Below, piece after piece: positions 8,630-20,924 of a stretch of DNA of 64,000 nucleotides; position 1 is the stretch's first letter; each line of letters begins with the position of its first letter. The notes below the pieces were generated by a model. That model saw nothing but the letters and a program-made list of their open reading frames with translations. It was not told the origin of the DNA and ran no database searches. The translations under genes were made by a program, and so were the position numbers. The stretch is from Burkholderia plantarii (GTDB taxonomy: Bacteria; Pseudomonadota; Gammaproteobacteria; Burkholderiales; Burkholderiaceae): contig NZ_CP007212.1 of NCBI RefSeq assembly GCF_001411805.1, forward strand, positions 2,046,001-2,110,000, written 5' to 3'.

Positions 8630-9378
8630 GTTTGCTGCCGGATAGGCAGCTTAGAAATTCTTGCGCCGGGCCTGTGGCTTGCGCGGTGCGTTTGCTGCCG
8701 GATAGGCAGCTTAGAAAGTAACGATCGTCGTTGCCCTTGATGAACTGATGTTTGCTGCCGGATAGGCAGCTTAGAAATTCATGATGAAGTCGTTGTAGCT
8801 GGGAAGGCCGTTTGCTGCCGGATAGGCAGCTTAGAAAATCCTGCACCTCGCGCGCGAGCAGGGGTGGATGTTTGCTGCCGGATAGGCAGCTTAGAAAGCT
8901 GACGGGCAGACATGAAGCCGATCCCGGGCGTTTGCTGCCGGATAGGCAGCTTAGAAAGCGATGGAGAATCGAAGCTGCATCCAATGGGAGTTTGCTGCCG
9001 GATAGGCAGCTTAGAAAGCGCTCGTGCTCGAGCTTCAGCACGAACGCACGTTTGCTGCCGGATAGGCAGCTTAGAAAGTAACCCGCGCGCGGTCCATCCC
9101 TCAACGAACCGTTTGCTGCCGGATAGGCAGCTTAGAAAATGTCGTACTTGGGAAAAGGGGACTGCTGTCTGTTTGCTGCCGGATAGGCAGCTTAGAAATA
9201 CCGGGCGAATTTCGGTCAGCGCGAGCTGATGTTTGCTGCCGGATAGGCAGCTTAGAAAGACTGGCAATTCTGGCGCGATACGACGCGCGCGTTTGCTGCC
9301 GGATAGGCAGCTTAGAAATTCCGCCACGTCCGGCTCGGGCGCGTCGAATTGTTTGCTACCGGACAGGCAGCGCAAATA
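8630..9378 (+). CRISPR. CRISPR array 1, type I-F, 13 repeats / 12 spacers
   Basis: 28-nt repeats starting GTTTGCTGCC and ending AGCTTAGAAA begin at 8630, 8690, 8750, 8810, 8870, 8930, 8990, 9050, 9111, 9171, 9231 and 9291, with a degenerate thirteenth at 9351-9378. Spacers are 32 nt (one of 33). The stem CTGCC/GGCAG with loop GGATA is the Cas6f hairpin and the 3' AGAAA gives the crRNA 5' handle. Transcription is left to right, since the leader is at the left and the decayed repeat at the right. The last repeat has changes at several places (GTTTGCTACCGGACAGGCAG, then CGCAAATA). All 12 spacers differ; several read as phage-like coding sequence on one strand, but no target could be searched. 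Confidence 0.98.
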
Positions 9379-9388
9379 ACAAAAAGAC
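9351..9388 (+). repeat. array-1 terminal degenerate repeat plus trailer, copy 1
   Basis: The final decayed repeat is followed by ATAACAAAAAGAC (9376-9388). The same 38-bp unit, in the same orientation, recurs at 10408-10445 on the other side of thiM. The last 13 bp are identical, the first 20 bp match at 16 positions. Confidence 0.7.
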
Positions 9389-9601
9389 AACCAGACACAT
9401 CCGGAATCCCCCGTGTGAGGCGGATTAAGAATCAGACCTCGACGTTGAATCGCTCCCGGGTAAAGCAGTGCAAACTGCGTCGTCGGACGTTTCCATTCGT
9501 GCCGGGAGCCGGCCCATTTCGCAACGACGTTGCGCAGGGCCAACCCAATCAGTTTGAGCGGGGCCTGCCCGAACCTTTCCACGCTTTTTCAGGGGATCAA
9601 C

Positions 9602-10387
9602 ATGACTCGGCAACTTTCATGGGCTGACGCAACGGTGCGCGACGAACTGGCGGCACTGCAACGCGCACAACCATTCGTCTACGGCCTGACCAACTACATC
9701 GCGGCCAACCTCAGTGCAAACGTGCTGCTGGCCGTGGGGGCCGCACCCGCGATTGGCGCCGCGCTGGACTGGCCGACCTGCTTCGCTGCCGCCGCAGCCG
9801 GGATGTGGGTCAACGGTGCCGCGCTGATCAGCAGCGCACCGGATACGCTCGAGACGGCCGCCCGGTCGGCACACGAAGCGGGTACGCCGTGGGTGCTCGA
9901 TCCCGTGGCGTTCGGGGCGGGCAGCCCCGGGTACGACGCGGCCATTCAAGCACTGCTGCGCTACAAGCCGGCGGCGATTCGCGGCAATGCAAGCGAACTG
10001 ATCGCGCTCGCGGGCGGCAGTGCCGGTACGAAGGGCGTGGAAAGCACCGCGCGCTCCGACGAGGCGATCGCGGTGATCCAGCACTTCGCGAAAGAGAGCG
10101 GCGCGGTGATCGCCGTCAGCGGGGAGGTGGATTACGTGACCGACGGCGAAACGCTGATTGCCGTCAGCGGCGGCGACGTGCGCCTCACCCGCGTCACCGG
10201 CGCCGGCTGCGCGCTTGGCGCGTTGATCGCGGGCTTGCTGGCGAATGCACGCTCGCCGCTCGAAGCCACGGCTGCGGCGCACGCGATTTACAAGGTCGCG
10301 GCGGAGCGCGCGGCATCGGCACGCGGCACCGGTTCGTTCGCCGTGGCGTTCGTCGACGAACTGTCGTTGCTCGACCCGGCAGCCTGA
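9602..10387 (+). CDS. thiM: hydroxyethylthiazole kinase ThiM, inside the CRISPR locus
   Basis: 261 aa, normal length. ThiM phosphorylates 4-methyl-5-(2-hydroxyethyl)thiazole in thiamine salvage. Family features: YGLTNYIAANLSANVLLAVGA near residues 23-43 (substrate site; quoted in part as LTNYIAANLSANVLL), NASELIALAG near 138-147, and the ATP/anion-hole motif RVTGAGCALGALIAG near 198-212. AGGGGATCAAC precedes the ATG. It lies between CRISPR array 1 and cas1 with no other thiamine gene near, and is bracketed by two copies of the array trailer. I looked for the conserved TPP-riboswitch boxes in the 213-bp leader and did not find them. Confidence 0.93.
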   Translation: MTRQLSWADATVRDELAALQRAQPFVYGLTNYIAANLSANVLLAVGAAPAIGAALDWPTCFAAAAAGMWVNGAALISSAPDTLETAARSAHEAGTPWVLDPVAFGAGSPGYDAAIQALLRYKPAAIRGNASELIALAGGSAGTKGVESTARSDEAIAVIQHFAKESGAVIAVSGEVDYVTDGETLIAVSGGDVRLTRVTGAGCALGALIAGLLANARSPLEATAAAHAIYKVAAERAASARGTGSFAVAFVDELSLLDPAA

Positions 10388-10407: not shown

Positions 10408-10445
10408 GGTTGATACCGCGCAGGCAGTCTGGATAACAAAAAGAC
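10408..10445 (+). repeat. copy 2 of the degenerate CRISPR terminal repeat and trailer
   Basis: GGTTGATACCGCGCAGGCAG followed by TCTGG and ATAACAAAAAGAC. It aligns without gaps to the end of array 1 (9351-9388) and lies 20 bp after the thiM stop and 98 bp before cas1. It suggests that array end and cas1 were once adjacent, or that a segment carrying thiM was inserted with duplication. Confidence 0.65.
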
Positions 10446-10543: not shown

Positions 10544-11536
10544 GTGGAGTCGATCAAGGCATCGGAACTTAAAACCATCCTGCACTCGAAGCGCGCGAAT
10601 CTCTATTATCTGGAGCATTGTCGGGTGCTCGTGAATGGCGGTCGCGTCGAGTATGTGACGGACGCCGGCAAGAAGCGTCTCTACTGGAATATCCCGATCG
10701 CGAACACCTCCAGCATCCTGCTCGGCACCGGCACGTCGATCACGCAGGCGGCGATGCGCGAGCTTGCCAAGGCCGGTGTGCTGGTCGGCTTCTGCGGAGG
10801 CGGCGGCACGCCGTTGTTCAGTGCGAACGAGGTCGATATCGAGGTGGCGTGGATGTCGCCGCAAAGCGAATATCGGCCGACCGAATATTTGCAGGCGTGG
10901 GTGCGATTCTGGTTCGACGACGCGTTACGGCTGCATGCCGCGAAACGCATTCAAACCGCGCGCCTGCATCGGCTTCAGGACGCATGGACCACCCGCGCAT
11001 TGCGGGAGTCGGGCTTCGGCGTCGAGCTCGAACCGTTGCAAGGACTGATCCGGCAATTCGAAAAACACATCGATGACGCGCGCGACGTGACGGCTTTGCT
11101 GACTGACGAGGCACGCCTGACCAAGGCATTGTTCAAACTTGCCGTCGATACCGTGGGCTACGGCGATTTCACGCGCGCAAAGCGCGGCACCGGCACCGAC
11201 GCGGCCAACCGGTTTCTCGATCATGGCAACTATCTGGCCTACGGCCTTGGCGCGACGGCGACCTAGGTGCTCGGGCTGCCGCATGGGCTGGCGGTGCTGC
11301 ACGGCAAGACGCGGCGCGGCGGCCTGGTGTTCGACGCGGCCGATCTGGTCAAGGACGCGATCATCCTGCCGCAGGCGTTCCTGTCCGCGATGCGCGGCGA
11401 CGACGAGCAACAGTTTCGCCGCCAATGCATTGAAGCGCTGACGCGTGACGAATCGCTCGACTTCATCATCGACACGCTCAAGTCGATCGCCGTCGACACG
11501 GCGCGGCTCGCGCAAACGCCGGGAGCCGCATCGTGA
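10544..11536 (+). pseudogene. cas1: cas1 (type I-F) with an in-frame amber stop
   Basis: The reading frame from GTG 10544 gives 240 residues of type I-F Cas1, then TAG at 11264-11266, then 89 more residues in the same frame to TGA 11534-11536. The total of about 330 codons is the normal I-F Cas1 length. The stop replaces a Trp codon position (GLGATAT*VLGLPHG; I-F relatives have W here), so one G-to-A change explains it. The catalytic Glu (E189, DEARLTK) lies before the stop. The other three conserved residues, His253 (LHGKTRRG), Asp264 and Asp267 (FDAADLVKD), lie after it. The truncated product should not integrate spacers. GTG-TGA overlap with cas2-3 is kept. Amber suppression or a sequence error are alternatives. 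Confidence 0.9.
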
Positions 11537-14500
11537 ACGTGCTGTTCGTGTCGCAATGCACGAAACGCGCGCTGACGGAAACCCGCCGCATCCTCGACCA
11601 GTTCGCCGAGCGGCGCGGCGATCGCACCTGGCAAACCCCGATCACGCAAGCCGGGCTCGACACCGTGCGCAAGCTGCTGCGCCAGACCGCGCGCAAGAAC
11701 ACGGCGGTGGCCTGCCACTGGATACGCGGGCGCGATCACAGCGAACTGCTGTGGATCGTCGGCGACGGCCGCCAGTTCAACAGGCAAGGGGCGGTGCCCA
11801 CCAATTCAAGCACCAGCGACGTGCTGCGCGCAGATGACGAAAGCCATTGGCACCGCTTGCCGCTGATTTCGGGCATCACGGCGCTGGCGGCGCTGATGCA
11901 CGATCTCGGCAAGGCCACGCTCGCGTTCCAGAACAAGTTGACGGCACAACGAGGGGCGCCGCGCAGCGACTATCGCCACGAGTGGGTATCGGTGCGGCTC
12001 TTCCAGGCGTTCGTCGGCGAGGCGGCGAACGATGCGGACTGGCTCGCGCGTCTTGCCGCTTGCGCGGACCCGGCAATGGATCCGTCCAGCTTCGAACTGC
12101 AGTGGCTCGATCACGAGGGCGGCCGGCTGCTGCGTGACGGGCGCGACGCGCAAGCCATGGCGCGCCTGCCGTTCGCCGTGCTGCCGCCGTTGGCGCAGGC
12201 TGTCGCGTGGCTGATCCTCACGCACCATCGTTTGCCGTGCAAACCCGTCCGGAACGAGGCTTCCAATCCCGAAGACGACGACCGACGTTTTCACTGGCGA
12301 CGGTTCGGCACCCGCACGCGCGATATCTCCGCCGGCGAACTGCGGCATCTGTTTCGCTGCATCGATCCCGACTGGAATGCGCCGCGCGAACCTTCGCCGC
12401 CGCATGAGTTGGACGCGGATTGGGAGTTTCCGCATGGGTTGCCGGTGATCACGTCGGCATGGAGAAAGCAGGCCGCGCGCCACGCGGGAAAACTTCAAGC
12501 CGTTGCTTCAGAAGCCGTCGCGAGCCATCCGCTTGACGATCCGTTCGTGATGCATGTTTCGCGCATGTGCCTGATGCTTGCCGACCATCACTATTCGAGC
12601 CTCACCGACGAAACGCTGCGCCGCCCGTATCGCAACGAACGTTATCCGCTTTACGCCAACACGCTGCGCAATCGGGATGGCGGCCCGGCGTGCGACGAAC
12701 GCGGCCGGTCACGCTTCAACCAGACGCTCGACGAGCACCTGCTCGGTGTGCAGGCGCATGCTTCGCTCGTCACGCATTCGCTACCGACGCTGGCACGCAG
12801 CCTTCCGGCCTTGCAGAATCATGCCGGCCTGAGGAAACGCAGCCGGAACGCGCGCTTTCAATGGCAGGACAAGGCAGCCGATCTCGCCGCGGGCATTCGC
12901 GCGCGGGCGCAGGAACATGGCGCGTTCATCGTCAACATGGCCTCCACCGGCAGCGGCAAGACGCTCGGCAATGCCCGCATCATGAATGCGCTGGCCGATC
13001 CGCAGCGCGGCATGCGATGTGCCTTCGCGATTGGCTTGCGGACGCTGACCTTGCAGACGGGACGCAGCTTCCGGCGCGACCTCGGCCTCAACGACGAGCA
13101 ACTGGCGATTCAGGTGGGCGGGGCGGTCAGCCGGATGCTGTTCGACTATCGCGAGGCGCAGGCCGAGGCAAGCGGATCGGCGTCGACGCAGGCGCTGCTC
13201 GACGAGGGCGGCCAGATCCTGTTCGATGGCGACGATCGGCATGCCTTGCTGCAACGCGTGACGAGCGATGCGAAGGTGCGCGCGCTGATCGCAGCGCCGC
13301 TGCTCGTCTGTACCGTCGATCATCTGATGCCCGCCACCGAGAGCCTGCGCGGCGGCCACCAGATCGCGCCGACGCTGCGCCTGATGACGGGCGACCTCGT
13401 GCTCGACGAGCCGGACGACTTCGACATCGACGACATACTGGCGCTGACCCGGCTCGTTCACTGGGCAGGCATGCTCGGCTCGCGCGTGTTGCTGTCGTCG
13501 GCCACGCTGCCGCCCGCGCTGGTGCAGGGCCTTTACCTCGCTTACCGGGACGGGCGCGGTTACTTCCAGCGCAATCGCGGCGCCCGGCCCGATGCGCCGC
13601 TTTCTGTTGCCTGCTTGTGGGTGGATGAGTTTGCACAGTCGCATGCCGATTGTGGTGATGGGGACGCGTTCAAGTCCGCCCACGATGCCTTTGTCGATCG
13701 GCGATGCGAACGGCTTGCCGGCGCCGAGGTCCGGCGCAAGGCGCGGCTGGTGTCGATCGATCGTGCCTGGAGTTCGATGGAGAAGCTCGCGCGCCGAGAA
13801 GCGATGTCGCGACTCTTGCTGGACGAAGCGTGGCAGTTGCATCGCGATTCGCAGAATCACGGCGTCGATCCGGCAAGCGGCAAGCGTGTGAGCCTCGGGC
13901 TGATCCGCATGTCGAACATCGATCCGTTGTTCGACGTGGCACTGGCGATGTATCGGCACGGCGCGCCGGCGCCTGACGTGCGTGTCCACCTGTGCGTTTA
14001 TCACTCGCAGTTTCCGCTGCTTGCCCGCTCCGATGTGGAGGCGCAACTGGATGCTGCGTTCGACCGGCGTCCGGCCTCCGGCGGCGTGGACCCGTTGTGG
14101 ACGAACCCGGTGATTCGCGCGCTGCTCGATCGGCATGACGAGCGCGATCACCTGTTCGTGGTGCTGGCGTCGCCGGTCTGTGAGGTGGGGCGCGACTGGG
14201 ATGCGGACTGGGCGATCGCGGAGCCGTCGGCGGTGCGTTCGCTGATCCAGCTTGCCGGCCGTGTGCGGCGACATCGAGTCGGCGCGGTGGCGGCGCCGAA
14301 CCTGGCCGTGCTCGAAACGAACCTGCGATGTTTCGAGCGGCGCGGCAAGGATGACCCGGTGTTCGCCAAGCCCGGATTCGAAATGCGCAAGATGGTGACG
14401 CATGGGAAAGGCGGCGACACGCAGGCGATGTTCCATCTGGAATCGCATAGCCTCGATGACCTGCTCGATTGGGACGAGAGCGGCCGGACCTGGTGCGTCG

Positions 14501-15051
14501 ATTCACGGCCACGAATTCGCAAGGCGGCGAAATTGAATCCGAGGCGCCGGCTTGCCGATCTCGAACACGGCCGAATGTGGGACACGATGCTGGCGCGCGA
14601 TGCGGCCAATCAATGGCGCACGCCGATCACGCGCGACGCGACACGGCATTGGCATGACCGCGATGCGGATGCGCGGCATGTCTGGCTGACGGGAGTCCTG
14701 CCGCAGATTCAGCCGTTTCGATTCGATCCGCAGACGCGTGTGGAAGTCGTGTGGCTGCCGAATGAGGACGAAGATGCGCTACGGCTTTGTCGGATCGAAG
14801 AGGAGAAAGGGGCACCGGCTCGATTCATCGACGATCGCGACATGGTGAGCCGCGTCGTGCCGGATGTGGAATTGGCCGGGCCGGGAATCAGCCCGTGGTG
14901 TCATACCGATCTGCTCGCGCTGCTGCGTCAGTGGGCGGAGGCCCACGGGCAAAGTCTGCTCGATGCCGCGCGGCAGGTGGCGGTGGTCAGTTTGCCGAAG
15001 CAGGATGCCGGGTGGCGGTATCACCCGGCATTAGGGTTCAGCAGGGATTGA
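11533..15051 (+). CDS. cas3: Cas2-3 fusion nuclease-helicase (type I-F)
   Basis: 1172 aa, typical of the fused Cas2-Cas3 of type I-F. Residues about 1-95 are the Cas2-like domain. The HD nuclease motif LMHDLGKATLAF is near 121-132. The SF2 helicase follows, with Walker A STGSGKT near 470-476, motif II DEPD near 624-627 and motif VI QLAGRVRRHR near 913-922. In the complex with Cas1 it serves adaptation; recruited by Csy-bound DNA it unwinds and degrades target DNA. GTG start at 11533 overlaps the cas1 stop (GTGA), so translation is probably coupled and may suffer from the cas1 amber. No internal stop seen. The stop codon is covered by the first degenerate CRISPR-like repeat of the creA-like element. 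Confidence 0.97.
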   Translation: MNVLFVSQCTKRALTETRRILDQFAERRGDRTWQTPITQAGLDTVRKLLRQTARKNTAVACHWIRGRDHSELLWIVGDGRQFNRQGAVPTNSSTSDVLRADDESHWHRLPLISGITALAALMHDLGKATLAFQNKLTAQRGAPRSDYRHEWVSVRLFQAFVGEAANDADWLARLAACADPAMDPSSFELQWLDHEGGRLLRDGRDAQAMARLPFAVLPPLAQAVAWLILTHHRLPCKPVRNEASNPEDDDRRFHWRRFGTRTRDISAGELRHLFRCIDPDWNAPREPSPPHELDADWEFPHGLPVITSAWRKQAARHAGKLQAVASEAVASHPLDDPFVMHVSRMCLMLADHHYSSLTDETLRRPYRNERYPLYANTLRNRDGGPACDERGRSRFNQTLDEHLLGVQAHASLVTHSLPTLARSLPALQNHAGLRKRSRNARFQWQDKAADLAAGIRARAQEHGAFIVNMASTGSGKTLGNARIMNALADPQRGMRCAFAIGLRTLTLQTGRSFRRDLGLNDEQLAIQVGGAVSRMLFDYREAQAEASGSASTQALLDEGGQILFDGDDRHALLQRVTSDAKVRALIAAPLLVCTVDHLMPATESLRGGHQIAPTLRLMTGDLVLDEPDDFDIDDILALTRLVHWAGMLGSRVLLSSATLPPALVQGLYLAYRDGRGYFQRNRGARPDAPLSVACLWVDEFAQSHADCGDGDAFKSAHDAFVDRRCERLAGAEVRRKARLVSIDRAWSSMEKLARREAMSRLLLDEAWQLHRDSQNHGVDPASGKRVSLGLIRMSNIDPLFDVALAMYRHGAPAPDVRVHLCVYHSQFPLLARSDVEAQLDAAFDRRPASGGVDPLWTNPVIRALLDRHDERDHLFVVLASPVCEVGRDWDADWAIAEPSAVRSLIQLAGRVRRHRVGAVAAPNLAVLETNLRCFERRGKDDPVFAKPGFEMRKMVTHGKGGDTQAMFHLESHSLDDLLDWDESGRTWCVDSRPRIRKAAKLNPRRRLADLEHGRMWDTMLARDAANQWRTPITRDATRHWHDRDADARHVWLTGVLPQIQPFRFDPQTRVEVVWLPNEDEDALRLCRIEEEKGAPARFIDDRDMVSRVVPDVELAGPGISPWCHTDLLALLRQWAEAHGQSLLDAARQVAVVSLPKQDAGWRYHPALGFSRD

Positions 15052-15130
15052 GAGGGCTGCCTGTTCGGCAGAAAAGCTGCGACGGGAAATCACTTCTTTA
15101 CTTGAATAAGCTGCCTGTCCGGCAGTGCGG
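15049..15130 (-). ncRNA. creA-like antitoxin guide RNA: degenerate mini-CRISPR
   Basis: Read on the minus strand, 15130-15103 is a 28-nt repeat relative. Its core CTGCCGGACAGGCAGCTTA differs from the array-1 repeat by one base and its ends are decayed. A 26-nt spacer follows (15102-15077, beginning AGTAAAGAAGTGA), then a second, more decayed repeat (15076-15049, core CTGCCGAACAGGCAGC). Both keep the Cas6f stem. The loop GGACA equals that of the decayed last repeat of array 1, suggesting descent from it. The spacer pairs with a site at 15191-15201 flanked by a CC PAM. This matches the architecture of CreA antitoxins or Cas-regulating RNAs, which guide Cascade to repress a nearby promoter. Transcription is not shown by sequence alone. 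Confidence 0.75.
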
Positions 15131-15138
15131 CAAAAATT

Positions 15139-15169
15139 AACATGCTTGGCTGAATGCTGGCTGCGTCAA
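15139..15169 (-). promoter_or_regulatory. candidate promoter of the creA-like RNA
   Basis: On the minus strand TTGACG (15169-15164) is a good -35 box. CATGTT (15144-15139) is a weak -10 box at 19-bp spacing. A start near 15131 would begin the RNA right at the first degenerate repeat. The -10 match is poor, so this is tentative. Confidence 0.4.
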
Positions 15170-15175
15170 ATTACC

Positions 15176-15203
15176 TGCGCCAAAATGCTTACTTCGTTAC
15201 TGG
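15176..15203 (-). promoter_or_regulatory. target site (protospacer) of the creA-like guide, with CC PAM
   Basis: Minus-strand sequence CC then AGTAACGAAGTAA. The CC at 15203-15202 is the type I-F PAM. Guide positions 1-5 and 7-11 match, position 6 is mismatched, 12 is mismatched, 13 matches, and the rest do not. Type I effectors flip out every sixth base, so position 6 mismatches are tolerated. Seed-only pairing is the pattern known for repression without cleavage by CreA-type guides. The site lies about 100 bp upstream of the creT-like mini-ORF. Confidence 0.7.
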
Positions 15204-15314
15204 CTTGGTCGGCGTTAATGTTCCGATCGCTGTACGGACGAGTCAGTCTGTTCAGCTCCGGTAGCGCGTTACATTTCCAAATGCAAGAAGCCTGCTTTGC
15301 AAGGAGGGATGTCG

Positions 15315-15353
15315 ATGGTGAATAACCACAATTTCATAATACGCACCGCATAA
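15315..15353 (+). CDS. creT-like mini-ORF with tandem rare ATA codons
   Basis: 12 codons (M V N N H N F I I R T A, then TAA). AAGGAGGG at 15301-15308 is the strongest Shine-Dalgarno in the locus, 6-7 nt before this ATG. An ATG at 15309 in frame is too close to it. Codons 8 and 9 are ATA ATA; ATA is among the rarest codons in high-GC Burkholderia and needs the CAU-anticodon isoleucine tRNA. Known CreT toxins are small RNAs with a strong ribosome site and a minimal ORF of tandem rare codons that sequester a scarce tRNA. It is followed 15 bp later by a terminator, so the transcript would be short. The toxic activity is inference; the promoter is not clear. Confidence 0.55.
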   Translation: MVNNHNFIIRTA

Positions 15354-15367
15354 AGGCGTAATTCCAC

Positions 15368-15400
15368 GCCCCCACCGTTTGCGCAGACGACGGGGGCTTT
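15368..15400 (+). terminator. terminator between creT-like RNA and csy1
   Basis: GCCCCC (15368-15373) pairs with GGGGGC (15392-15397) and CGT/ACG pair inside. TTT follows at 15398-15400. It sits 15 bp after the mini-ORF stop and 28 bp before csy1, so it would separate a short RNA from the csy operon or attenuate it. Confidence 0.65.
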
Positions 15401-15427: not shown

Positions 15428-16801
15428 ATGTCCGACTCACCAGCAGCACCGGGCAATTCAAGTTTCAGGGCCGCCGTCGATGCATTCCTGCGCTCCCGTC
15501 TCCAGGCAAAACTCGACAAGCTTCCCGATGACGATCCGAAGCGAGCCGACCTGATCGCGGAGCACCAGCGCACCGCATGGATTCCCGACGCCGCGCGGCG
15601 GGTCCGGCAGATCCAGGCCGTGACGCACTCGCTGAAGCCGATCCACCCCGATGCGCGTGGCACGAACCTCCACGTCGCGCCGTCCGATCTGCCCACGCTG
15701 ACGGACCTGGGTAGCCATACGCTCGGTGGCCGCTTCGCGCTGGACGTGGTCGGCAACGCCGCTGCGCTCGACGTGGTCAAGCTGCTCAAGGTCGAACATG
15801 ATGGGCGCACGCTGCTGGATGCGCTCCAGGCTGGTGACGCCGGCGCCTTGAGCGCACTCGCCGACGATACCGTCGAAGCGGCCGCGCTGCGCGATGCGTT
15901 CCTGAACCTGACCGAAGCGCGAGACGGCACGGCCAGCTCTCACGTACTCGCGAAGCAGGTGTACTGGCTGACCGGCGACGATCCGAGCGACGATGCTCAA
16001 TACCACCTGCTCGCGCCGCTTTACCCGACTTCGCTCGTGCAGGCCGTCTACGACGACGTCCACGATGCCCGTTTCGGCGAGGCGAACAAGCTGGCGCGCC
16101 AGGCACGCCGCGAGGGCGCGCCGTTCGACGGGGTCTATCGCGAGTATCGCGATCTCGCCGTGCAGAAACTTGGCGGCACGAAACCGCAAAACATCTCGCA
16201 GCTCAACAGCGAGCGAGGCGGCAACAACTATCTGCTGTCGTCGCTGCCGCCGGTGTGGGACAGCCGCCTCAACCATCTGCCTGCTCATACCGACTCGATC
16301 TTCGATCGCCCGTTCACGGGGCGGCCAGAGGTGCGCCGCACGCTGAACGCGTTGCGCACGTTCCTGAGCGGCGATCCATCCGCGAATCTCGACACGCGGA
16401 CACGTCGGGATGCCTTGCGCGATCGGCTCATCGACGAACTGGTGAGTTATGCCGGCGAGCTACTTCGTCATCCCGCCGGCTGGACGCGCGAAGCGCCGTT
16501 CGCGGATCTGAACGATGACGAAAAGCTCTGGCTCGACCCGCTGCGCGCCGAGTTGCCGGAGGAGCGCGAGTTCGCCGTGCGCTGGCTCGCGATGGAATGG
16601 CCCGAGCGCATCGGCGCGCGTTTCGGCAAATGGTTGAACGCGCAACTGCGGCACGAGTTACCCGACGTCGGCTACCACGAGGCGCGCGAATGGCAGCGCG
16701 CGCTGCTGGGCGACGACAGCAGTTGGCAGGAGCAGTTGCGGCGTATGCGCGACGCGCTCGATCACGTTCACCTCAGCCACGTCTCGACGGAGGGCGCATG
16801 A
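15428..16801 (+). CDS. csy1: Csy1 / Cas8f, large subunit of the I-F surveillance complex
   Basis: 457 aa, family-typical length. In the Csy complex Csy1 with Csy2 holds the crRNA 5' handle and reads the CC PAM. Recognised by position, by size and by conserved patches such as FRAAVDAFLRSRLQAKLDKL near residues 11-30 and VTHSLKPIHPDARGTNL near residues 67-83. GAAGGAAA lies 5-6 bp before the ATG. The stop overlaps csy2 (ATGA at 16798-16801). It is the first gene of csy1-csy2-csy3-cas6f and is separated from cas2-3 by the 376-bp CreTA-like module, so csy expression probably depends on a promoter inside that gap or on read-through. Confidence 0.95.
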   Translation: MSDSPAAPGNSSFRAAVDAFLRSRLQAKLDKLPDDDPKRADLIAEHQRTAWIPDAARRVRQIQAVTHSLKPIHPDARGTNLHVAPSDLPTLTDLGSHTLGGRFALDVVGNAAALDVVKLLKVEHDGRTLLDALQAGDAGALSALADDTVEAAALRDAFLNLTEARDGTASSHVLAKQVYWLTGDDPSDDAQYHLLAPLYPTSLVQAVYDDVHDARFGEANKLARQARREGAPFDGVYREYRDLAVQKLGGTKPQNISQLNSERGGNNYLLSSLPPVWDSRLNHLPAHTDSIFDRPFTGRPEVRRTLNALRTFLSGDPSANLDTRTRRDALRDRLIDELVSYAGELLRHPAGWTREAPFADLNDDEKLWLDPLRAELPEEREFAVRWLAMEWPERIGARFGKWLNAQLRHELPDVGYHEAREWQRALLGDDSSWQEQLRRMRDALDHVHLSHVSTEGA

Positions 16802-17847
16802 GCGATATCGAGGCGCTGCTGGTCCTGCCTCATCTGCAGATCCAGAACGCGAATGCGATCTCGAGCCCGCTGACCCACGGCTTTCCTTCCATCACGGCGA
16901 TGACGGGGTTGATGTGGGCGCTGCAACGCAAGCTTGCCGGCGCGGGGATTCCGTTGAAGCTGCGGCGCGTGGGCGTGATCTGCCATGACTTCGATGAGCA
17001 GGTCCAGGACGGCTACGTGAAGACGTTCCGCCTGACGCGCAACCCGGTGGACAAGGACGGCGCAACGGCGGCGATTGTCGAGCAAGGGCGCATGCATCTG
17101 GACCTCACGCTGCTGTTCGACGTCGTGGATGCCGGAACGGCGGGAGACGCGCCGTCGTCCGGCCTGCGCGACGACACTGGCCGCAACGAATGGGCCACGA
17201 GGATCGGCGAGATTGTCGCCGGGATGCGCGTGGCCGGTGGATCCGTTTTACCGGGCCGTGCGATTCCGGGCCGGCGCACGCGGCCGTGGATCGCGACGCT
17301 GCCGGACGACTATGAGGAACAGCTTCGGCTGTTTGCGCGCTGGCGGCGGCAATGGTTGCCCGGGTACGCGCTGGTGGGCCGCGACCACTTGCTGGCTGAG
17401 CGACATCGCCTGCTGCGCGAGCAAGGCGACGACGCGAGCCTGCTCGACGCGTGGCTGCATGCGGCACGCTTCAACCACCAACCGCTGCCCGACGAGTCGG
17501 CCGGCAGCGGCGCCGACGCCGCGAAGCGCTTGCGTTGGGGCGACCCGTTGCGCCCGCGCGGCAGCGGCTGGATCGTACCGATCCCGGTGGGTTATGCGGC
17601 GTTGACGAAGCCGCATGCGCCCGGTGCGGTCGCGAATACGCGCGATGCGGCGACGCCGTTTGTCTGGGTCGAATCGATCTATTCACTCGGGCAGTGGATC
17701 AGCCCGCACCGCGTCACGCACTGGCACGAACTGCTCTGGCAGCCGGAAACCGACGGCAAGGCGGGGCTTTACCGCTGCCGCAGCGGTTACCAGGGGCCGG
17801 CGGGCGCGAACGAGCCGGGCGACGACGATCTTCCCGATTTCGATTGA
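16798..17847 (+). CDS. csy2: Csy2 / Cas5f
   Basis: 349 aa. Cas5f pairs with Csy1 at the crRNA 5' end in the type I-F complex. The typical N-terminus is [20 protein letters not shown] (about residues 7-26), with a second conserved patch [19 protein letters not shown] just after it. ATG overlaps the csy1 stop (ATGA). A 70-bp gap, with its own weak ribosome site, follows before csy3. No lesion seen. Confidence 0.95.
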
Positions 17848-17917: not shown

Positions 17918-18934
17918 ATGTCGGAAAAACTGACCACCGCGACCGTGCTCGCGTTCGAACGCAAACTGGACCCGTCCGACGCGATCTTCCACGCGGGGCA
18001 TTGGGATGACCATGACAAGGCGTCGGCTTGGACGCCGGTGGAGATTCGCGAGAAATCGGTGCGCGGCACGATCTCGAACCGCCTGAAGACGAAGGAGCAG
18101 GATCCCGCGAAGCTCGACGCCGCGATCGAGAAGCCGAATCTGCAAACCGTCGATGTGGCGACGCTGCCGTCGGATGCCGACACCTTGCGCGTGCAATTCA
18201 CGCTGCGGGTGCTGTCCGGCGCGGGCACGCCGTCGGCCTGCAACAGCGCGGCTTACCGCGCGAAGCTATCGAGCGTGGTGAGTGCTTATGTCGAGCAGCA
18301 TGGTTTCGCCGAACTCGCGAATCGCTATGCAGCCAATCTGGCCAACGGACGCTTCCTCTGGCGCAACCGGATCGGCGCGGAGAGCGTGCGGGTGGAGATT
18401 GCGCGGCTGCGCAAGGGAGCCGCCGAACGGACCTGGACGTTCGACGCGCTGTCGCTGAACCTGCGCTCCATCGAGACGCCCGATGCGCCGCTTGCCGAGC
18501 TTGGCGAATTGATTGCAGACGGGCTGGCTGGTCGTACCGACGTGCTGCTGCAGGTCACTGCGTATGTGCGCCTTGGACGAGGGCAGGAGGTGTTTCCGTC
18601 GCAGGAACTGATTCTCGACAAAGGCTCGAGCCGCAAGAGCAAGACGCTTTATCAGGTGCGCGATATCGCGGCGATTCACTCACAAAAGATCGGCAACGCG
18701 ATCCGGACCATCGATAGCTGGTATGAGGGCGCGGACGAGCTTGGGCCGATCGCCGTCGAGCCGTATGGCTCCGTGACGACGCAGGGCAAGGCGTATCGGC
18801 AGCCGAAGCAGAAACAGGACTTTTATACGCTGCTCGACGATTGGCTGCTGAAGGACCGGATTCCGCCCGTCGAGCAGCAGCATTTCGTGCTGGCGGTGCT
18901 GATTCGCGGCGGCGTGTTCGGCGACGCGAGCTGA
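17918..18934 (+). CDS. csy3: Csy3 / Cas7f backbone subunit
   Basis: 338 aa; six copies form the helical backbone of the I-F complex on the crRNA. Very strong family match: [14 protein letters not shown] near residues 11-24, [15 protein letters not shown] near 45-59, [12 protein letters not shown] near 227-238 and [20 protein letters not shown] near 280-299. An in-frame ATG at 17909 would add three residues; the start at 17918 matches the usual N-terminus. Intact. Confidence 0.97.
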
Positions 18935-18939
18935 CCGCC

Positions 18940-19506
18940 ATGACGACACATTTCATCGATATCAGGCTGCTGCCTGATCCTGAATTCAGTCAGGTGCATG
19001 TATTTGGTGCGTTGGTGTCGAAACTGCATCGAGTGCTGGTGCAGATGCGTCGCGACGACATCGGCATCAGCTTTCCGGAATACAGCTTGCGACCACGCTC
19101 GGTCGGAACGGTGCTGCGGCTGCATGGTGGAGATGTGGGTTTGCGCGAACTGATGGCGCAGCCATGGTTGCAGGGGATGCGCGATCACGTTGTGGTGGCC
19201 GAAGCGGCGCCGGTGCCGGCGGGGGCGACGCACCGGGTTGTGCGGCGGCGCCAGTTCAAGACCAATGCCGAGCGCTTGCGCCGCCGCCGGATGCAGCGCA
19301 AGGGGGAAACCGCCGAGCAGGCCGCGGCGCATATTCCCGATAGCGTCGAGCGGCGGCCGGATCTGCCTTATGTGCAATTGCGCAGCACGAGCACTGGGCA
19401 GGGGTTTTGCCTGTTTGTTGAGCAGGGGAATGAGGGGCGGGAGGCGGTAGCGGGAGCGTTCAACAGTTACGGGTTGAGTCAGGGCGCGACGGTGCCGTGG
19501 TTTTAA
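18940..19506 (+). CDS. cas6f: Cas6f / Csy4 crRNA-processing endonuclease
   Basis: 188 aa, close to the size of Pseudomonas Csy4. It cleaves pre-crRNA at the base of the repeat hairpin and stays bound to it. The catalytic His is H30 (SKLHRVLVQ), equivalent to His29. The arginine-rich RNA-binding helix (ERLRRRRMQRKG) is near residues 110-121 and the family C-terminus GLSQGATVPWF is present. It starts 5 bp after csy3. Its stop directly abuts the leader of array 2. It must process both repeat variants, which share the stem. Confidence 0.97.
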   Translation: MTTHFIDIRLLPDPEFSQVHVFGALVSKLHRVLVQMRRDDIGISFPEYSLRPRSVGTVLRLHGGDVGLRELMAQPWLQGMRDHVVVAEAAPVPAGATHRVVRRRQFKTNAERLRRRRMQRKGETAEQAAAHIPDSVERRPDLPYVQLRSTSTGQGFCLFVEQGNEGREAVAGAFNSYGLSQGATVPWF

Positions 19507-19635: not shown

Positions 19636-20924
19636 GTTCGCTGCCGCGTAGGCAGCTTAGAAAGTCGACGTCCGGCAACTCAGGGCCGAGTTCGCGTTCG
19701 CTGCCGCGTAGGCAGCTTAGAAACGAGATCGCTGCTCGCATGCTGGCCGAGCGCTGGTTCGCTGCCGCGTAGGCAGCTTAGAAAACCACGCCAGAATGCT
19801 CGGTGGAACGACAAGGGTTCGCTGCCGCGTAGGCAGCTTAGAAATCGTTGCGGATCATCGAGGAAGCAAATGCGCAGTTCGCTGCCGCGTAGGCAGCTTA
19901 GAAATGAGACCACACCATGAAGCCATATGTGTTCAGGTTCGCTGCCGCGTAGGCAGCTTAGAAAACGTCCAGCTGCTTCGCGGTGAGCCAGCCGGTGTTC
20001 GCTGCCGCGTAGGCAGCTTAGAAAATATTGGAGACGGTATTGGGGGTTCTCCAATAGTTCGCTGCCGCGTAGGCAGCTTAGAAAAATGCGGCCGGACGAC
20101 GAGACGGTCAAGGCCAGTTCGCTGCCGCGTAGGCAGCTTAGAAATGGCCGCCGGCATCGATCACGACGTGGTCATAGTTCGCTGCCGCGTAGGCAGCTTA
20201 GAAAACGCATGCGGCTGTATCTGGCGGCCGGCCGACGTTCGCTGCCGCGTAGGCAGCTTAGAAATTCGTACTTGCGCTCCCACGCCATCTGACGCATGTT
20301 CGCTGCCGCGTAGGCAGCTTAGAAATCGCAGATGTCGGGTGAATGGGTTGCTGCGCCGTTCGCTGCCGCGTAGGCAGCTTAGAAATATGAGGCTTGCAAG
20401 CGCATCCGCGAAGTGCTGTTCGCTGCCGCGTAGGCAGCTTAGAAATTCCAGTCCTGGCGCCCTTTGCGCTCTTCCTCGTTCGCTGCCGCGTAGGCAGCTT
20501 AGAAATAGATCCTGCATTCCTATTCACGTTCCTACGCGTTCGCTGCCGCGTAGGCAGCTTAGAAATCGATGCTCGCTACTTGATCGGTTGGATCGGGTTC
20601 GCTGCCGCGTAGGCAGCTTAGAAAGAGCACCAGCAGATAAACGAAGCAGACGCCGAGTTCGCTGCCGCGTAGGCAGCTTAGAAACATGTCGAACCATTCT
20701 TCCGGGCCGCTCATGCGTTCGCTGCCGCGTAGGCAGCTTAGAAATTGCCGACGATCAGCCAGTAGTGGCTCGTCTTGTTCGCTGCCGCGTAGGCAGCTTA
20801 GAAATCGCCGGCCAGCCATGCCGCGTCACGCCCCTCGTTCGCTGCCGCGTAGGCAGCTTAGAAATTCAGCCACATTGCACGCCGCCACCCACGCACGTTC
20901 GCTGCCGCATAGGCAGCTTAGAAA
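19636..20924 (+). CRISPR. CRISPR array 2, type I-F, 22 repeats / 21 spacers
   Basis: 28-nt repeats starting GTTCGCTGCC and ending AGCTTAGAAA begin at 19636, 19696, 19757, 19817, 19877, 19937, 19997, 20057, 20117, 20177, 20237, 20298, 20358, 20418, 20478, 20538, 20597, 20657, 20717, 20777, 20837 and 20897. Spacers are 31-33 nt. The repeat differs from array 1 at position 4 (C for T) and in the hairpin loop (GCGTA for GGATA); the stem is the same. Only the last repeat is altered (loop GCATA), marking the old end. Transcribed left to right from the leader after cas6f. All spacers differ from each other and from array 1. Confidence 0.98.

What the first reader, a model, noticed from the sequence alone, without database searches (positions are those of the whole stretch)
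15049..15400. CreTA-like RNA toxin-antitoxin module between cas2-3 and csy1
The 376-bp gap between cas2-3 and csy1 is far larger than the other cas junctions. It contains, divergently arranged, a leftward degenerate mini-CRISPR (guide), a target site for that guide, and a rightward short RNA with a strong Shine-Dalgarno, a 12-codon ORF with tandem rare codons and a terminator. This is the full parts list of a CRISPR-regulated toxin-antitoxin pair: Csy complex plus guide would repress the toxin RNA, so loss of csy1-csy2-csy3-cas6f would be punished. Here cas1 is broken but all csy genes are intact, just what such an addiction module predicts. An alternative is a Cas-regulating RNA that tunes the csy promoter. 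I know of no description for this Burkholderia locus.
Basis: partly seen in the sequence, partly recalled or inferred. Interest (0 to 1): 0.95.

Follow-up and report, generated by a model that had tools for sequence, protein, structure and literature searches.

The report
CRISPR-guarded rare-codon RNA toxin pair
Between two CRISPR genes this bacterium (likely a Burkholderia) carries a degenerate mini-CRISPR next to a DNA site that its guide matches and a tiny reading frame with two rare codons in a row; the CRISPR complex is predicted to keep that frame's RNA, a likely toxin, switched off, so losing the complex would likely poison the cell.

Summary
In the 376-bp cas2-3/csy1 gap a leftward two-repeat mini-CRISPR (19/28 and 18/28 like the arrays' repeats) carries a guide that matches a CC-PAM site at positions 1-5 and 7-11, with the flipped-out base 6 mismatched. 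A strong Shine-Dalgarno, a 12-codon ORF with ATA-ATA and a stem-loop follow. The anatomy recurs: 28 of 63 scanned csy1 loci have such a mini-CRISPR, and 25 of the 28 have a significant CC-flanked target; bases 6 and 12 match in only 4 and 6 of 25. Nine of 28 carry a tandem-rare-codon mini-ORF (ATA once, AGA five times, TTA three times) against 41 of 28,000 shuffles. A published Acinetobacter CreTA is recovered by the same scripts. Best reading: a type I-F CreTA (type VIII toxin-antitoxin) whose CreT combines the tandem rare codons of haloarchaeal CreT with a start-codon hairpin like that of Acinetobacter CreT. Toxicity, transcription and repression are untested; the window's promoter was not found. 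Ten other loci place the target 5-113 nt before csy1 without such an ORF (autorepressor-like); the types interleave on the Csy1 tree. New variant of a known kind.

The parts
11533..15051 (+). cas2-3 (Cas3f), left boundary of the gap
   Evidence: TIGR02562, E=0, residues 1-1169 of 1172
15049..15076 (-). psiR2, second degenerate repeat of the mini-CRISPR; its low-coordinate end overlaps the cas2-3 stop codon
   Evidence: 18/28 to array repeat R1, exact CTGCC/GGCAG stem; RF01317 18.6 bits, below gathering score
15072..15102 (-). spacer-like guide (psiS) of creA, read leftward, up to the psiR2 stem
   Evidence: between the two stems
15103..15130 (-). psiR1, first degenerate repeat, ending in an 8-nt handle-like CTTATTCA
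   Evidence: 19/28 to array repeat R1; RF01317 23.1 bits, below gathering score
15185..15203 (-). target of the guide with CC PAM (15203-15202); positions 1-5 and 7-11 match, 6 and 12 do not
   Evidence: seed 10/10, p=0.002; also the best site without any PAM rule
15301..15308 (+). strong Shine-Dalgarno AAGGAGGG of creT
   Evidence: sequence; scan
15315..15353 (+). creT mini-ORF, 12 codons and stop, with ATA ATA at codons 8-9 (15336-15341); nt 2-5 can pair with nt 11-14, so the start codon is partly in a stem
15368..15397 (+). GC-rich stem-loop downstream of the mini-ORF, weak as an intrinsic terminator
   Evidence: fold -18.7 kcal/mol; not reported by the terminator scan
15428..16801 (+). csy1 (cas8f), right boundary of the gap
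   Evidence: TIGR02564, E=4.3e-109
16798..17847 (+). csy2 (cas5f)
   Evidence: TIGR02565, E=1.6e-77
17918..18934 (+). csy3 (cas7f)
   Evidence: TIGR02566, E=6.5e-137
18940..19506 (+). cas6f (csy4), predicted processor of creA
   Evidence: TIGR02563, E=4.2e-56
10544..11266 (+). cas1 N-terminal part, ended by an in-frame stop; the same frame continues 11267-11536
   Evidence: both pieces match TIGR03637 when searched apart
8630..9378 (+). CRISPR array 1, 12 perfect repeats and one degenerate
19636..20924 (+). CRISPR array 2, 22 repeats (21 perfect)

Best explanation
The cas2-3/csy1 gap carries a leftward degenerate mini-CRISPR whose guide matches a CC-flanked site upstream of a short ORF with tandem rare codons, and together they are predicted to act as a type I-F CRISPR-regulated toxin-antitoxin (CreTA). 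Inferred steps: Cas6f would process the leftward RNA at its two stems into CreA; the Csy complex would carry CreA to the site, pairing essentially over the seed only so that Cas2-3 likely does not cut, and block transcription of creT. If the Csy complex is lost or inhibited, creT RNA would be made and efficiently initiated (strong SD, start codon in or beside a small hairpin); ribosomes would likely stall on the two AUA codons and tie up the scarce tRNA-Ile(CAU), arresting growth. Cells would thus be addicted to csy1-csy2-csy3-cas6f but not to cas1. Shown: sequence anatomy, statistics and recurrence. Not shown: transcripts, processing, repression, toxicity. The confidence given is for a CreTA module of either toxic mechanism; the sequestration step alone I put at about 0.5.
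For: Guide-target: 10/10 seed, CC PAM, p=0.002. Across 28 loci with a leftward mini-CRISPR, 25 have a CC target at p<=0.006; per-position matches in those 25 are 25,24,24,25,25 / 4 / 23,24,23,24,21 / 6 for positions 1-5 / 6 / 7-11 / 12, the flipped-base pattern of type I crRNAs. Without a PAM rule 25 of 28 best sites have CC; 25 of 28 own scores are >=10 against 5 of 756 swapped guides. Tandem ATA/AGA/TTA mini-ORF after an SD of >=6 nt: 9 of 28, 0 of 28 antisense, 41 of 28,000 shuffles, 0 of 35 loci without a mini-CRISPR, though many of those 35 have short gaps. Rare pair at codons 8-9 in 6 of the 9; start codon pairs with codon 5 in 6 of the 9, also in the variant L057 and in Acinetobacter LoGeW2-3, as AUG-CAU, GUG-CAC or GUG-CGC. 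ATA is 0.79/1000 in 37 GC3-filtered genes (rank 3 of 61 from the rarest; TTA 1, AGA 4). Two elongator-type CAU tRNA genes were seen, so probably one for Ile. Positive control recovered.
Against: No sigma70-like promoter at the window's target (p=0.58). The nearest same-genus locus has no detectable mini-CRISPR. The window's stem-loop lacks a T-run and is not strong against shuffles; only 5 of 10 loci tested have a stem-loop beyond all 200 shuffles, so creT may read into csy1. In the published Acinetobacter CreT, with AGA AGG at the same codons, toxicity was traced to a start-codon hairpin and likely rRNA pairing, not to rare codons (PMC10097628), so the sequestration step may be wrong even if the module is right. 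Without the GC3 filter ATA is 3.38/1000, rank 9. The rare-codon set and the mini-CRISPR cut-off were fixed after first seeing data. Three of 28 loci lack a significant target; L012 has a TTA-TTA ORF but no target; six of 14 far-target loci have no tandem identical rare pair.
Confidence: 0.8

Rival explanations
1. CreR-like autorepressor: the guide lets the Csy complex repress the transcript that reads into csy1-cas6f, and the mini-ORF is only a harmless leader.
For: Ten loci have the target 5-113 nt before csy1 with no rare-codon ORF; in L004 and L005 it overlaps the -35 of TTGACT-N17-TATGCT facing csy1 (p=0.003 and 0.010). The window's stem-loop is a poor terminator, so read-through into csy1 is plausible. 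CreR is published for type I systems (review PMC12737573, passages).
Against: In the window the target lies 226 nt upstream, with a strong SD, a tandem-rare-codon ORF and a stem-loop between; such ORFs occur in 8 of 14 far-target loci and 0 of 10 near-target loci. The ORF needs the space, so this split is partly built in.
Confidence: 0.12
2. CreTA as above, but the toxin works like Acinetobacter CreT: the start-codon hairpin interferes with translation initiation or rRNA, and the rare codons are accessory (a sub-version of the best explanation, counted inside its 0.8).
For: Start codon pairs with codon 5 in 8 of 12 ORFs examined: L006, L011, L034, L038, L057, L059, L060 and the published LoGeW2-3; SD plus codon-5 pairing plus short ORF in 7 of 31 regions vs 31 of 9,300 shuffles. 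Synonymous changes at codons 2, 3 or 5 and certain stem and loop changes abolished Acinetobacter toxicity (PMC10097628, passages).
Against: In the window the outermost pair is missing, in L037 the pairing partner is codon 4, and in L012 and Vitreoscilla the codon-5 pairing is absent, while the rare pair is kept. The pair changes between ATA, AGA and TTA, all among the rarest codons, which a pure hairpin model does not predict.
Confidence: 0.3
3. Attenuator leader: ribosome stalling at the rare codons controls the downstream stem-loop and thereby csy expression.
For: A stem-loop starts 14 nt after the mini-ORF and csy1 lies 74 nt after its stop codon.
Against: The amino acid is not conserved (Ile, Arg, Leu), only rarity; it does not explain the guide-target pair. 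No antiterminator was sought.
Confidence: 0.04
4. Relic: a degraded mini-array with a chance match and a chance ORF.
For: The repeats are degenerate, no promoter was recognised, and the same-genus locus lacks the element.
Against: Flipped-base pattern, PAM, shuffles, swaps and recurrence.
Confidence: 0.03

Closest known systems
Acinetobacter type I-F CreTA (WCHA45, LoGeW2-3, ANC3789; PMC10097628: abstract, sections 6 and 15, and passages seen)
   Same: Same place (cas3-csy1 gap of about 400 bp), two psiR leftward, CC-PAM target, divergent mini-ORF with SD. The LoGeW2-3 ORF has 11 codons with stop, codon 5 pairing to the start and two Arg codons AGA AGG at 8-9, as in several loci here; its guide also matches at 1-5 and 7-11.
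   Different: Published toxicity is a start-codon hairpin with likely rRNA pairing, not tandem rare codons; [quoted passage not shown] The window's gap has no blastn match in the plasmid collection, which holds the LoGeW2-3 record.
Halobacterium hubeiense CreTA (type I-B; PMC8501985: abstract and passages seen)
   Same: Two degenerate repeats, seed pairing 1-5 and 7-11 beside a PAM, mini-ORF with two consecutive AUA codons, downstream stem-loop, tRNA-Ile(CAU) as the target.
   Different: Archaeal, type I-B, upstream of the cas operon, leaderless six-codon ORF without SD.
CreR, RNA-based cas autoregulation (Cell Host Microbe 2023, not held; seen only through passages of reviews PMC12737573 and PMC12948488)
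   Same: Mini-CRISPR-like guide lets the effector repress the cas promoter; the near-target loci here look like this.
   Different: CreR is generally not coupled to a toxin; the window has a candidate toxin ORF between target and csy1.
Phage lambda bar minigenes (passage in PMC8012679)
   Same: Tiny ORF whose AUA codon depletes free tRNA through peptidyl-tRNA.
   Different: Start codon, AUA, stop; no CRISPR control; [quoted passage not shown]
CrePA (CRISPR-repressed protein toxin; passages of review PMC12737573)
   Same: Toxin kept off by the CRISPR effector.
   Different: Toxin is a protein; here the candidate toxin is an RNA with a mini-ORF.

Membership tests
CreTA (type VIII toxin-antitoxin) | Lies in a class 1 CRISPR-Cas locus with an effector complex | tested here: met
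   I-F cas genes identified; csy1-3 and cas6f frames intact
CreTA (type VIII toxin-antitoxin) | creA: crRNA-like gene with one or two degenerate repeats and a spacer-like guide | tested here: met
   pair score 1.77 vs shuffled maximum 1.30 of 40; sub-threshold RF01317 at both
CreTA (type VIII toxin-antitoxin) | Guide partly complementary (seed) to a PAM-flanked site by creT | tested here: met
   10/10 seed, CC PAM, p=0.002
CreTA (type VIII toxin-antitoxin) | Target lies at or just after the creT promoter | tested here: inconclusive
   No promoter recognised in the window; in 13 of 24 loci the best promoter-like -35 starts within 6 nt of the target's PAM edge, 7 of these at p<=0.05
CreTA (type VIII toxin-antitoxin) | creT: short RNA with strong initiation signals, mini-ORF and stem-loop | tested here: met
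   SD AAGGAGGG and 12-codon ORF; stem-loop present but weak; sequence features only
CreTA (type VIII toxin-antitoxin) | creT RNA is toxic and is repressed by effector plus CreA | not testable with these tools
   needs expression experiments
tRNA-sequestering CreT subgroup | Two consecutive minor codons read by a scarce tRNA | tested here: met
   ATA ATA; 14 of 757 Ile codons in 37 GC3-filtered genes (less rare without the filter); two elongator-type CAU tRNA genes seen
tRNA-sequestering CreT subgroup | Toxicity relieved by extra cognate tRNA or by common codons | not testable with these tools
   needs expression experiments
Acinetobacter-type hairpin CreT | Start codon inside a short hairpin stem | tested here: inconclusive
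   Window: nt 2-5 can pair with 11-14, nt 1 and 15 cannot; eight of 12 ORFs examined pair start with codon 5
CreR (cas autorepressor) | Target in the promoter of the cas operon, no toxin gene between | tested here: not met
   Target 226 nt upstream with SD, ORF and stem-loop between

The most novel reading that the evidence does not exclude
The cas2-3/csy1 gap of type I-F loci is a switchable safety slot: one Csy-guided repression site that in different lineages controls either a suicide RNA or the csy operon itself, and the suicide RNA is one bacterial CreT family with an exchangeable warhead (AGA-AGA, AUA-AUA or UUA-UUA) on a shared start-codon hairpin, uniting the Acinetobacter and haloarchaeal CreT mechanisms and adding a leucine-tRNA version.
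Probability: 0.45. Interest if true: 0.85.

Novelty: new variant of a known kind. Interest (0 to 1): 0.72.

Why it matters
CreTA modules offer an explanation for how costly CRISPR systems are kept, but the characterised bacterial one acts differently from the archaeal ones, and their small size hinders discovery. This gives a simple search recipe (gap before csy1, leftward mini-CRISPR, 1-5/7-11 seed beside CC, tandem rare codons) that finds the module in genomes of the window's family, order and class, links the two CreT mechanisms into one testable family, and suggests that autorepression and addiction are alternative states of one site. It makes directly testable whether anti-CRISPR proteins, by freeing creT, would arrest such I-F hosts.

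Tried and rejected
Promoter search at the window's target: nothing above chance. DNA-level search of the gap in plasmids: no match. Csy1 patterns in viral contigs gave no relative; tblastn in phages gave two weak Acinetobacter phage records, not followed; the one genome-contig scan gave a single relative, Paraburkholderia sp. Ac-20340. The same scan missed Vitreoscilla's psiR1 (4-nt loop); it was found by eye and its target then checked. L044 (score 1.41, rightward) was dropped before the counts as the only rightward hit over the cut; the cut of 1.4 was set after seeing scores. Left out of the 63 as duplicates or fragments: L015, L017-L020, L024-L033, L052-L055 (L020 is replaced by L021, L015 by L022). 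L012's tandem ORF counts among the 9 although it has no target; L057 (TCA ATA) is among the 28 but not the 9; the Acinetobacter and Vitreoscilla records are outside the 28. The tree holds 54 of the 63, rows under 330 residues dropped, plus two named records. Rejected: ordinary array fragment (opposite strand, degenerate, seed-only match beside the locus); 'cas1 broken, csy intact' as proof of addiction (n=1). Not examined: supplementary tables of PMC10097628, whose methods mention 19 further modules, and the Science 2021 and Cell Host Microbe 2023 papers, not held; so a prior listing of some of these loci cannot be excluded. Paper searches, rows shown of rows found: CreTA terms 17 of 17, CreR 20 of 135, Burkholderia with CreTA 5 of 5, cas3-csy1/crRNA-resembling 20 of 719, mini-CRISPR/tRNA-sequestering 30 of 115, Burkholderia with type I-F CRISPR 10 of 37, B. 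glumae PG1 with CRISPR 7 of 7, CreT with csy1 or Burkholderiales 10 of 33: none of the rows shown, by title and start of abstract, describes this Burkholderia module.
Full report
What is there. The window lies in an 8.08-Mb genome of three contigs. A 20-kb stretch of its third contig (197 kb) is about 86% identical over 80% of its length to Burkholderia glumae plasmids, and the 4.14 + 3.74 + 0.197 Mb layout resembles the published B. plantarii KACC 18964 genome (4.20 + 3.73 + 0.194 Mb; PMC11153758, passages); genus and species are inference. A type I-F locus runs from a CRISPR array (12 perfect repeats plus one degenerate) through thiM, cas1, cas2-3, the gap, csy1, csy2, csy3 and cas6f to a second array of 22 repeats. 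cas1 is cut by one in-frame stop; the other cas frames are intact and match their families.

The gap. In 376 bp, the minus strand holds two repeat-like hairpins with the array's stem, with a 31-nt guide up to the second stem. The guide matches a site nearer csy1 on the same strand, beside CC, at positions 1-5 and 7-11 but not 6 or 12. The plus strand then has AAGGAGGG, a 12-codon ORF with ATA ATA at codons 8-9, and a GC stem-loop that starts 14 nt after the stop. No sigma70-like promoter was recognised.

Survey. Csy1 was sought in six genome searches of 398, 65, 58, 399, 144 and 369 genomes, which overlap; 15, 2, 9, 20, 4 and 32 genomes had matches. Sixty-three loci, duplicates and fragments left out, went into one script. 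In 28 a two-repeat mini-CRISPR scored at least 1.4 on the minus strand; one further hit, rightward in L044, was dropped. With a score that ignores positions 6 and 12, 25 of 28 guides have a CC-flanked site at p<=0.006 (500 shuffles each; 24 leftward, one, L045, on the other strand); matches at positions 6 and 12 are 4 and 6 of 25, near the chance quarter, while positions 1-5 and 7-11 match in 21 to 25. With no PAM rule 25 of 28 best sites carry CC. Guides tried on other loci's gaps reached 10 or more in 5 of 756 cases, two of them between the near-identical guides of L004 and L005, against 25 of 28 for their own gap. The three without a significant CC site are L007, L012 and L013; L013 has a long match beside CT.

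Toxin-like ORFs. An SD of at least 6 nt followed by an ORF of at most 45 codons with tandem ATA, AGA or TTA occurs in 9 of 28 mini-CRISPR loci (window ATA; L006, L011, L038, L059, L060 AGA; L012, L034, L037 TTA), in 0 of 28 antisense, in 41 of 28,000 Markov shuffles, and in 0 of 35 loci without a mini-CRISPR, many of which have short gaps. The codon set was chosen after seeing the first ORFs, so these numbers lean in favour. Of the 24 loci with a leftward target, 14 have it 185-535 nt and 10 have it 5-113 nt before csy1; the eight tandem ORFs with a target all fall in the first group (chance 0.004, though the ORF itself needs space). The other six of the 14 have no such pair; one of them, L057, has TCA ATA in the same place. 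The rare pair sits at codons 8-9 in 6 of 9. In L006, L011, L034, L038, L057, L059 and L060, and in the published Acinetobacter LoGeW2-3 ORF, the start codon pairs with codon 5, as GUG-CAC, GUG-CGC or AUG-CAU; in the window the outermost pair is missing but nt 2-5 can pair with 11-14; L012, L037 and Vitreoscilla do not pair in this register. A search for SD plus codon-5 pairing plus short ORF found 7 of 31 regions against 31 of 9,300 shuffles. LoGeW2-3 has AGA AGG at codons 8-9, so published and new ORFs share one layout. Downstream stem-loops beat all 200 shuffles in 5 of 10 loci tested (L011, L037, L038, L057, L060); in the window p=0.105 on a 77-nt stretch.

Promoters. In 13 of 24 loci with a leftward target the best promoter-like -35 starts within 6 nt of the target's PAM edge, 7 of these at p<=0.05 (L004, L005, L034, L059, L061, L065, L084); the window's best site is elsewhere and not above chance (p=0.58).

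Controls and named relatives. The scripts recover the published LoGeW2-3 module (mini-CRISPR 1.86, CC target, p=0.003, 203 nt from csy1) and a similar one in Acinetobacter sp. ANC 7970; Methylobacter sp. YRD-M1 looks near-type (66 nt), while in Methylomonas koyamae the script found no significant pair and in Vitreoscilla it missed it.

Codons and tRNA. In 37 long genes of the window's genome filtered for GC3>=0.80, ATA is 0.79 per thousand (14 of 757 Ile codons, rank 3 of 61), TTA rank 1 and AGA rank 4; without the filter (145 ORFs) ATA is 3.38 per thousand, rank 9, and ATA-ATA occurs twice in 64,948 pairs. The genome has 61 tRNA places; ARAGORN on the stretches covering them gave four CAU genes, two initiator-like and two elongator-like, of which L092 is nearer E. 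coli Ile2. So probably one gene reads AUA; copies with identical flanks were merged in that count.

Evolution. On a Csy1 tree of 56 rows, loci of the near-target (7 rows), AGA (6) and TTA (3) kinds are interleaved; well-supported branches force at least 5, 4 and 3 changes. Taken singly these labels are not clearly clustered (102, 500 and 500 of 500 shuffles as low); all nine labels together are somewhat (9 of 200). So the state of the gap seems to change often, or the module moves. The only other same-genus locus found has a 394-bp gap but no detectable mini-CRISPR, which counts against conservation within the genus.

Interpretation. The parts and their order match CreTA as described for haloarchaea and Acinetobacter (PMC8501985, PMC10097628; passages and two sections seen). 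Differences: a bacterial I-F system with tandem identical rare codons on or beside a start-codon hairpin. Which of the two toxic principles acts here cannot be told from sequence: the swapping of three rare codons favours tRNA sequestration, the conserved pairing of the start favours the Acinetobacter mechanism. In near-target loci the same device most likely autorepresses the csy operon, as in CreR. In the window, read-through past the weak stem-loop could give both effects.

Noticed in passing
window 9530-10387, with repeat-like ends at 9351-9388 and 10408-10445: A hydroxyethylthiazole kinase gene (thiM, PF02110) sits between CRISPR array 1 and cas1, flanked by two degenerate repeats both followed by the same TAACAAAAAGAC, as if inserted at a duplicated array end.
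   Followed up: partly
window 11264-11266: In-frame stop in cas1; the same frame continues with Cas1f similarity.
   Followed up: partly
window 8630-9378 and 19636-20924: The two arrays use different repeat variants (GTTTGCTGCCGGATAGG.. and GTTCGCTGCCGCGTAGG..) beside one cas operon.
   Followed up: no
L159 471-1505; L165 1018-1780; L036 3224-3661: The same cas3-csy1 gap holds protein toxin-antitoxin-like genes elsewhere: VapC and XRE genes in Vitreoscilla, GNAT plus DUF1778 in Methylomonas koyamae, an HTH protein in L036: a possible hotspot for addiction modules.
   Followed up: partly
L065, about 80-86 nt before csy1: An ORF GTG TTT GGC AAG CAC TAA (in frame with an ATG two codons upstream) keeps a start/codon-5 pairing but stops before any rare pair (ORF; pairing seen by eye).
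   Followed up: no
L021 (same genus, G399): 394-bp cas2-3/csy1 gap without a recognisable mini-CRISPR; what fills it is unknown.
   Followed up: no
L037: Two CC-flanked sites for one guide, 8/10 seed matches each, by a TTA-TTA ORF.
   Followed up: no
G000, tRNA stretches L086-L115 and L136-L155: ARAGORN listed no tRNA with anticodon UAA among the 53 distinct tRNAs of the window's genome; probably a missed gene, not checked.
   Followed up: no
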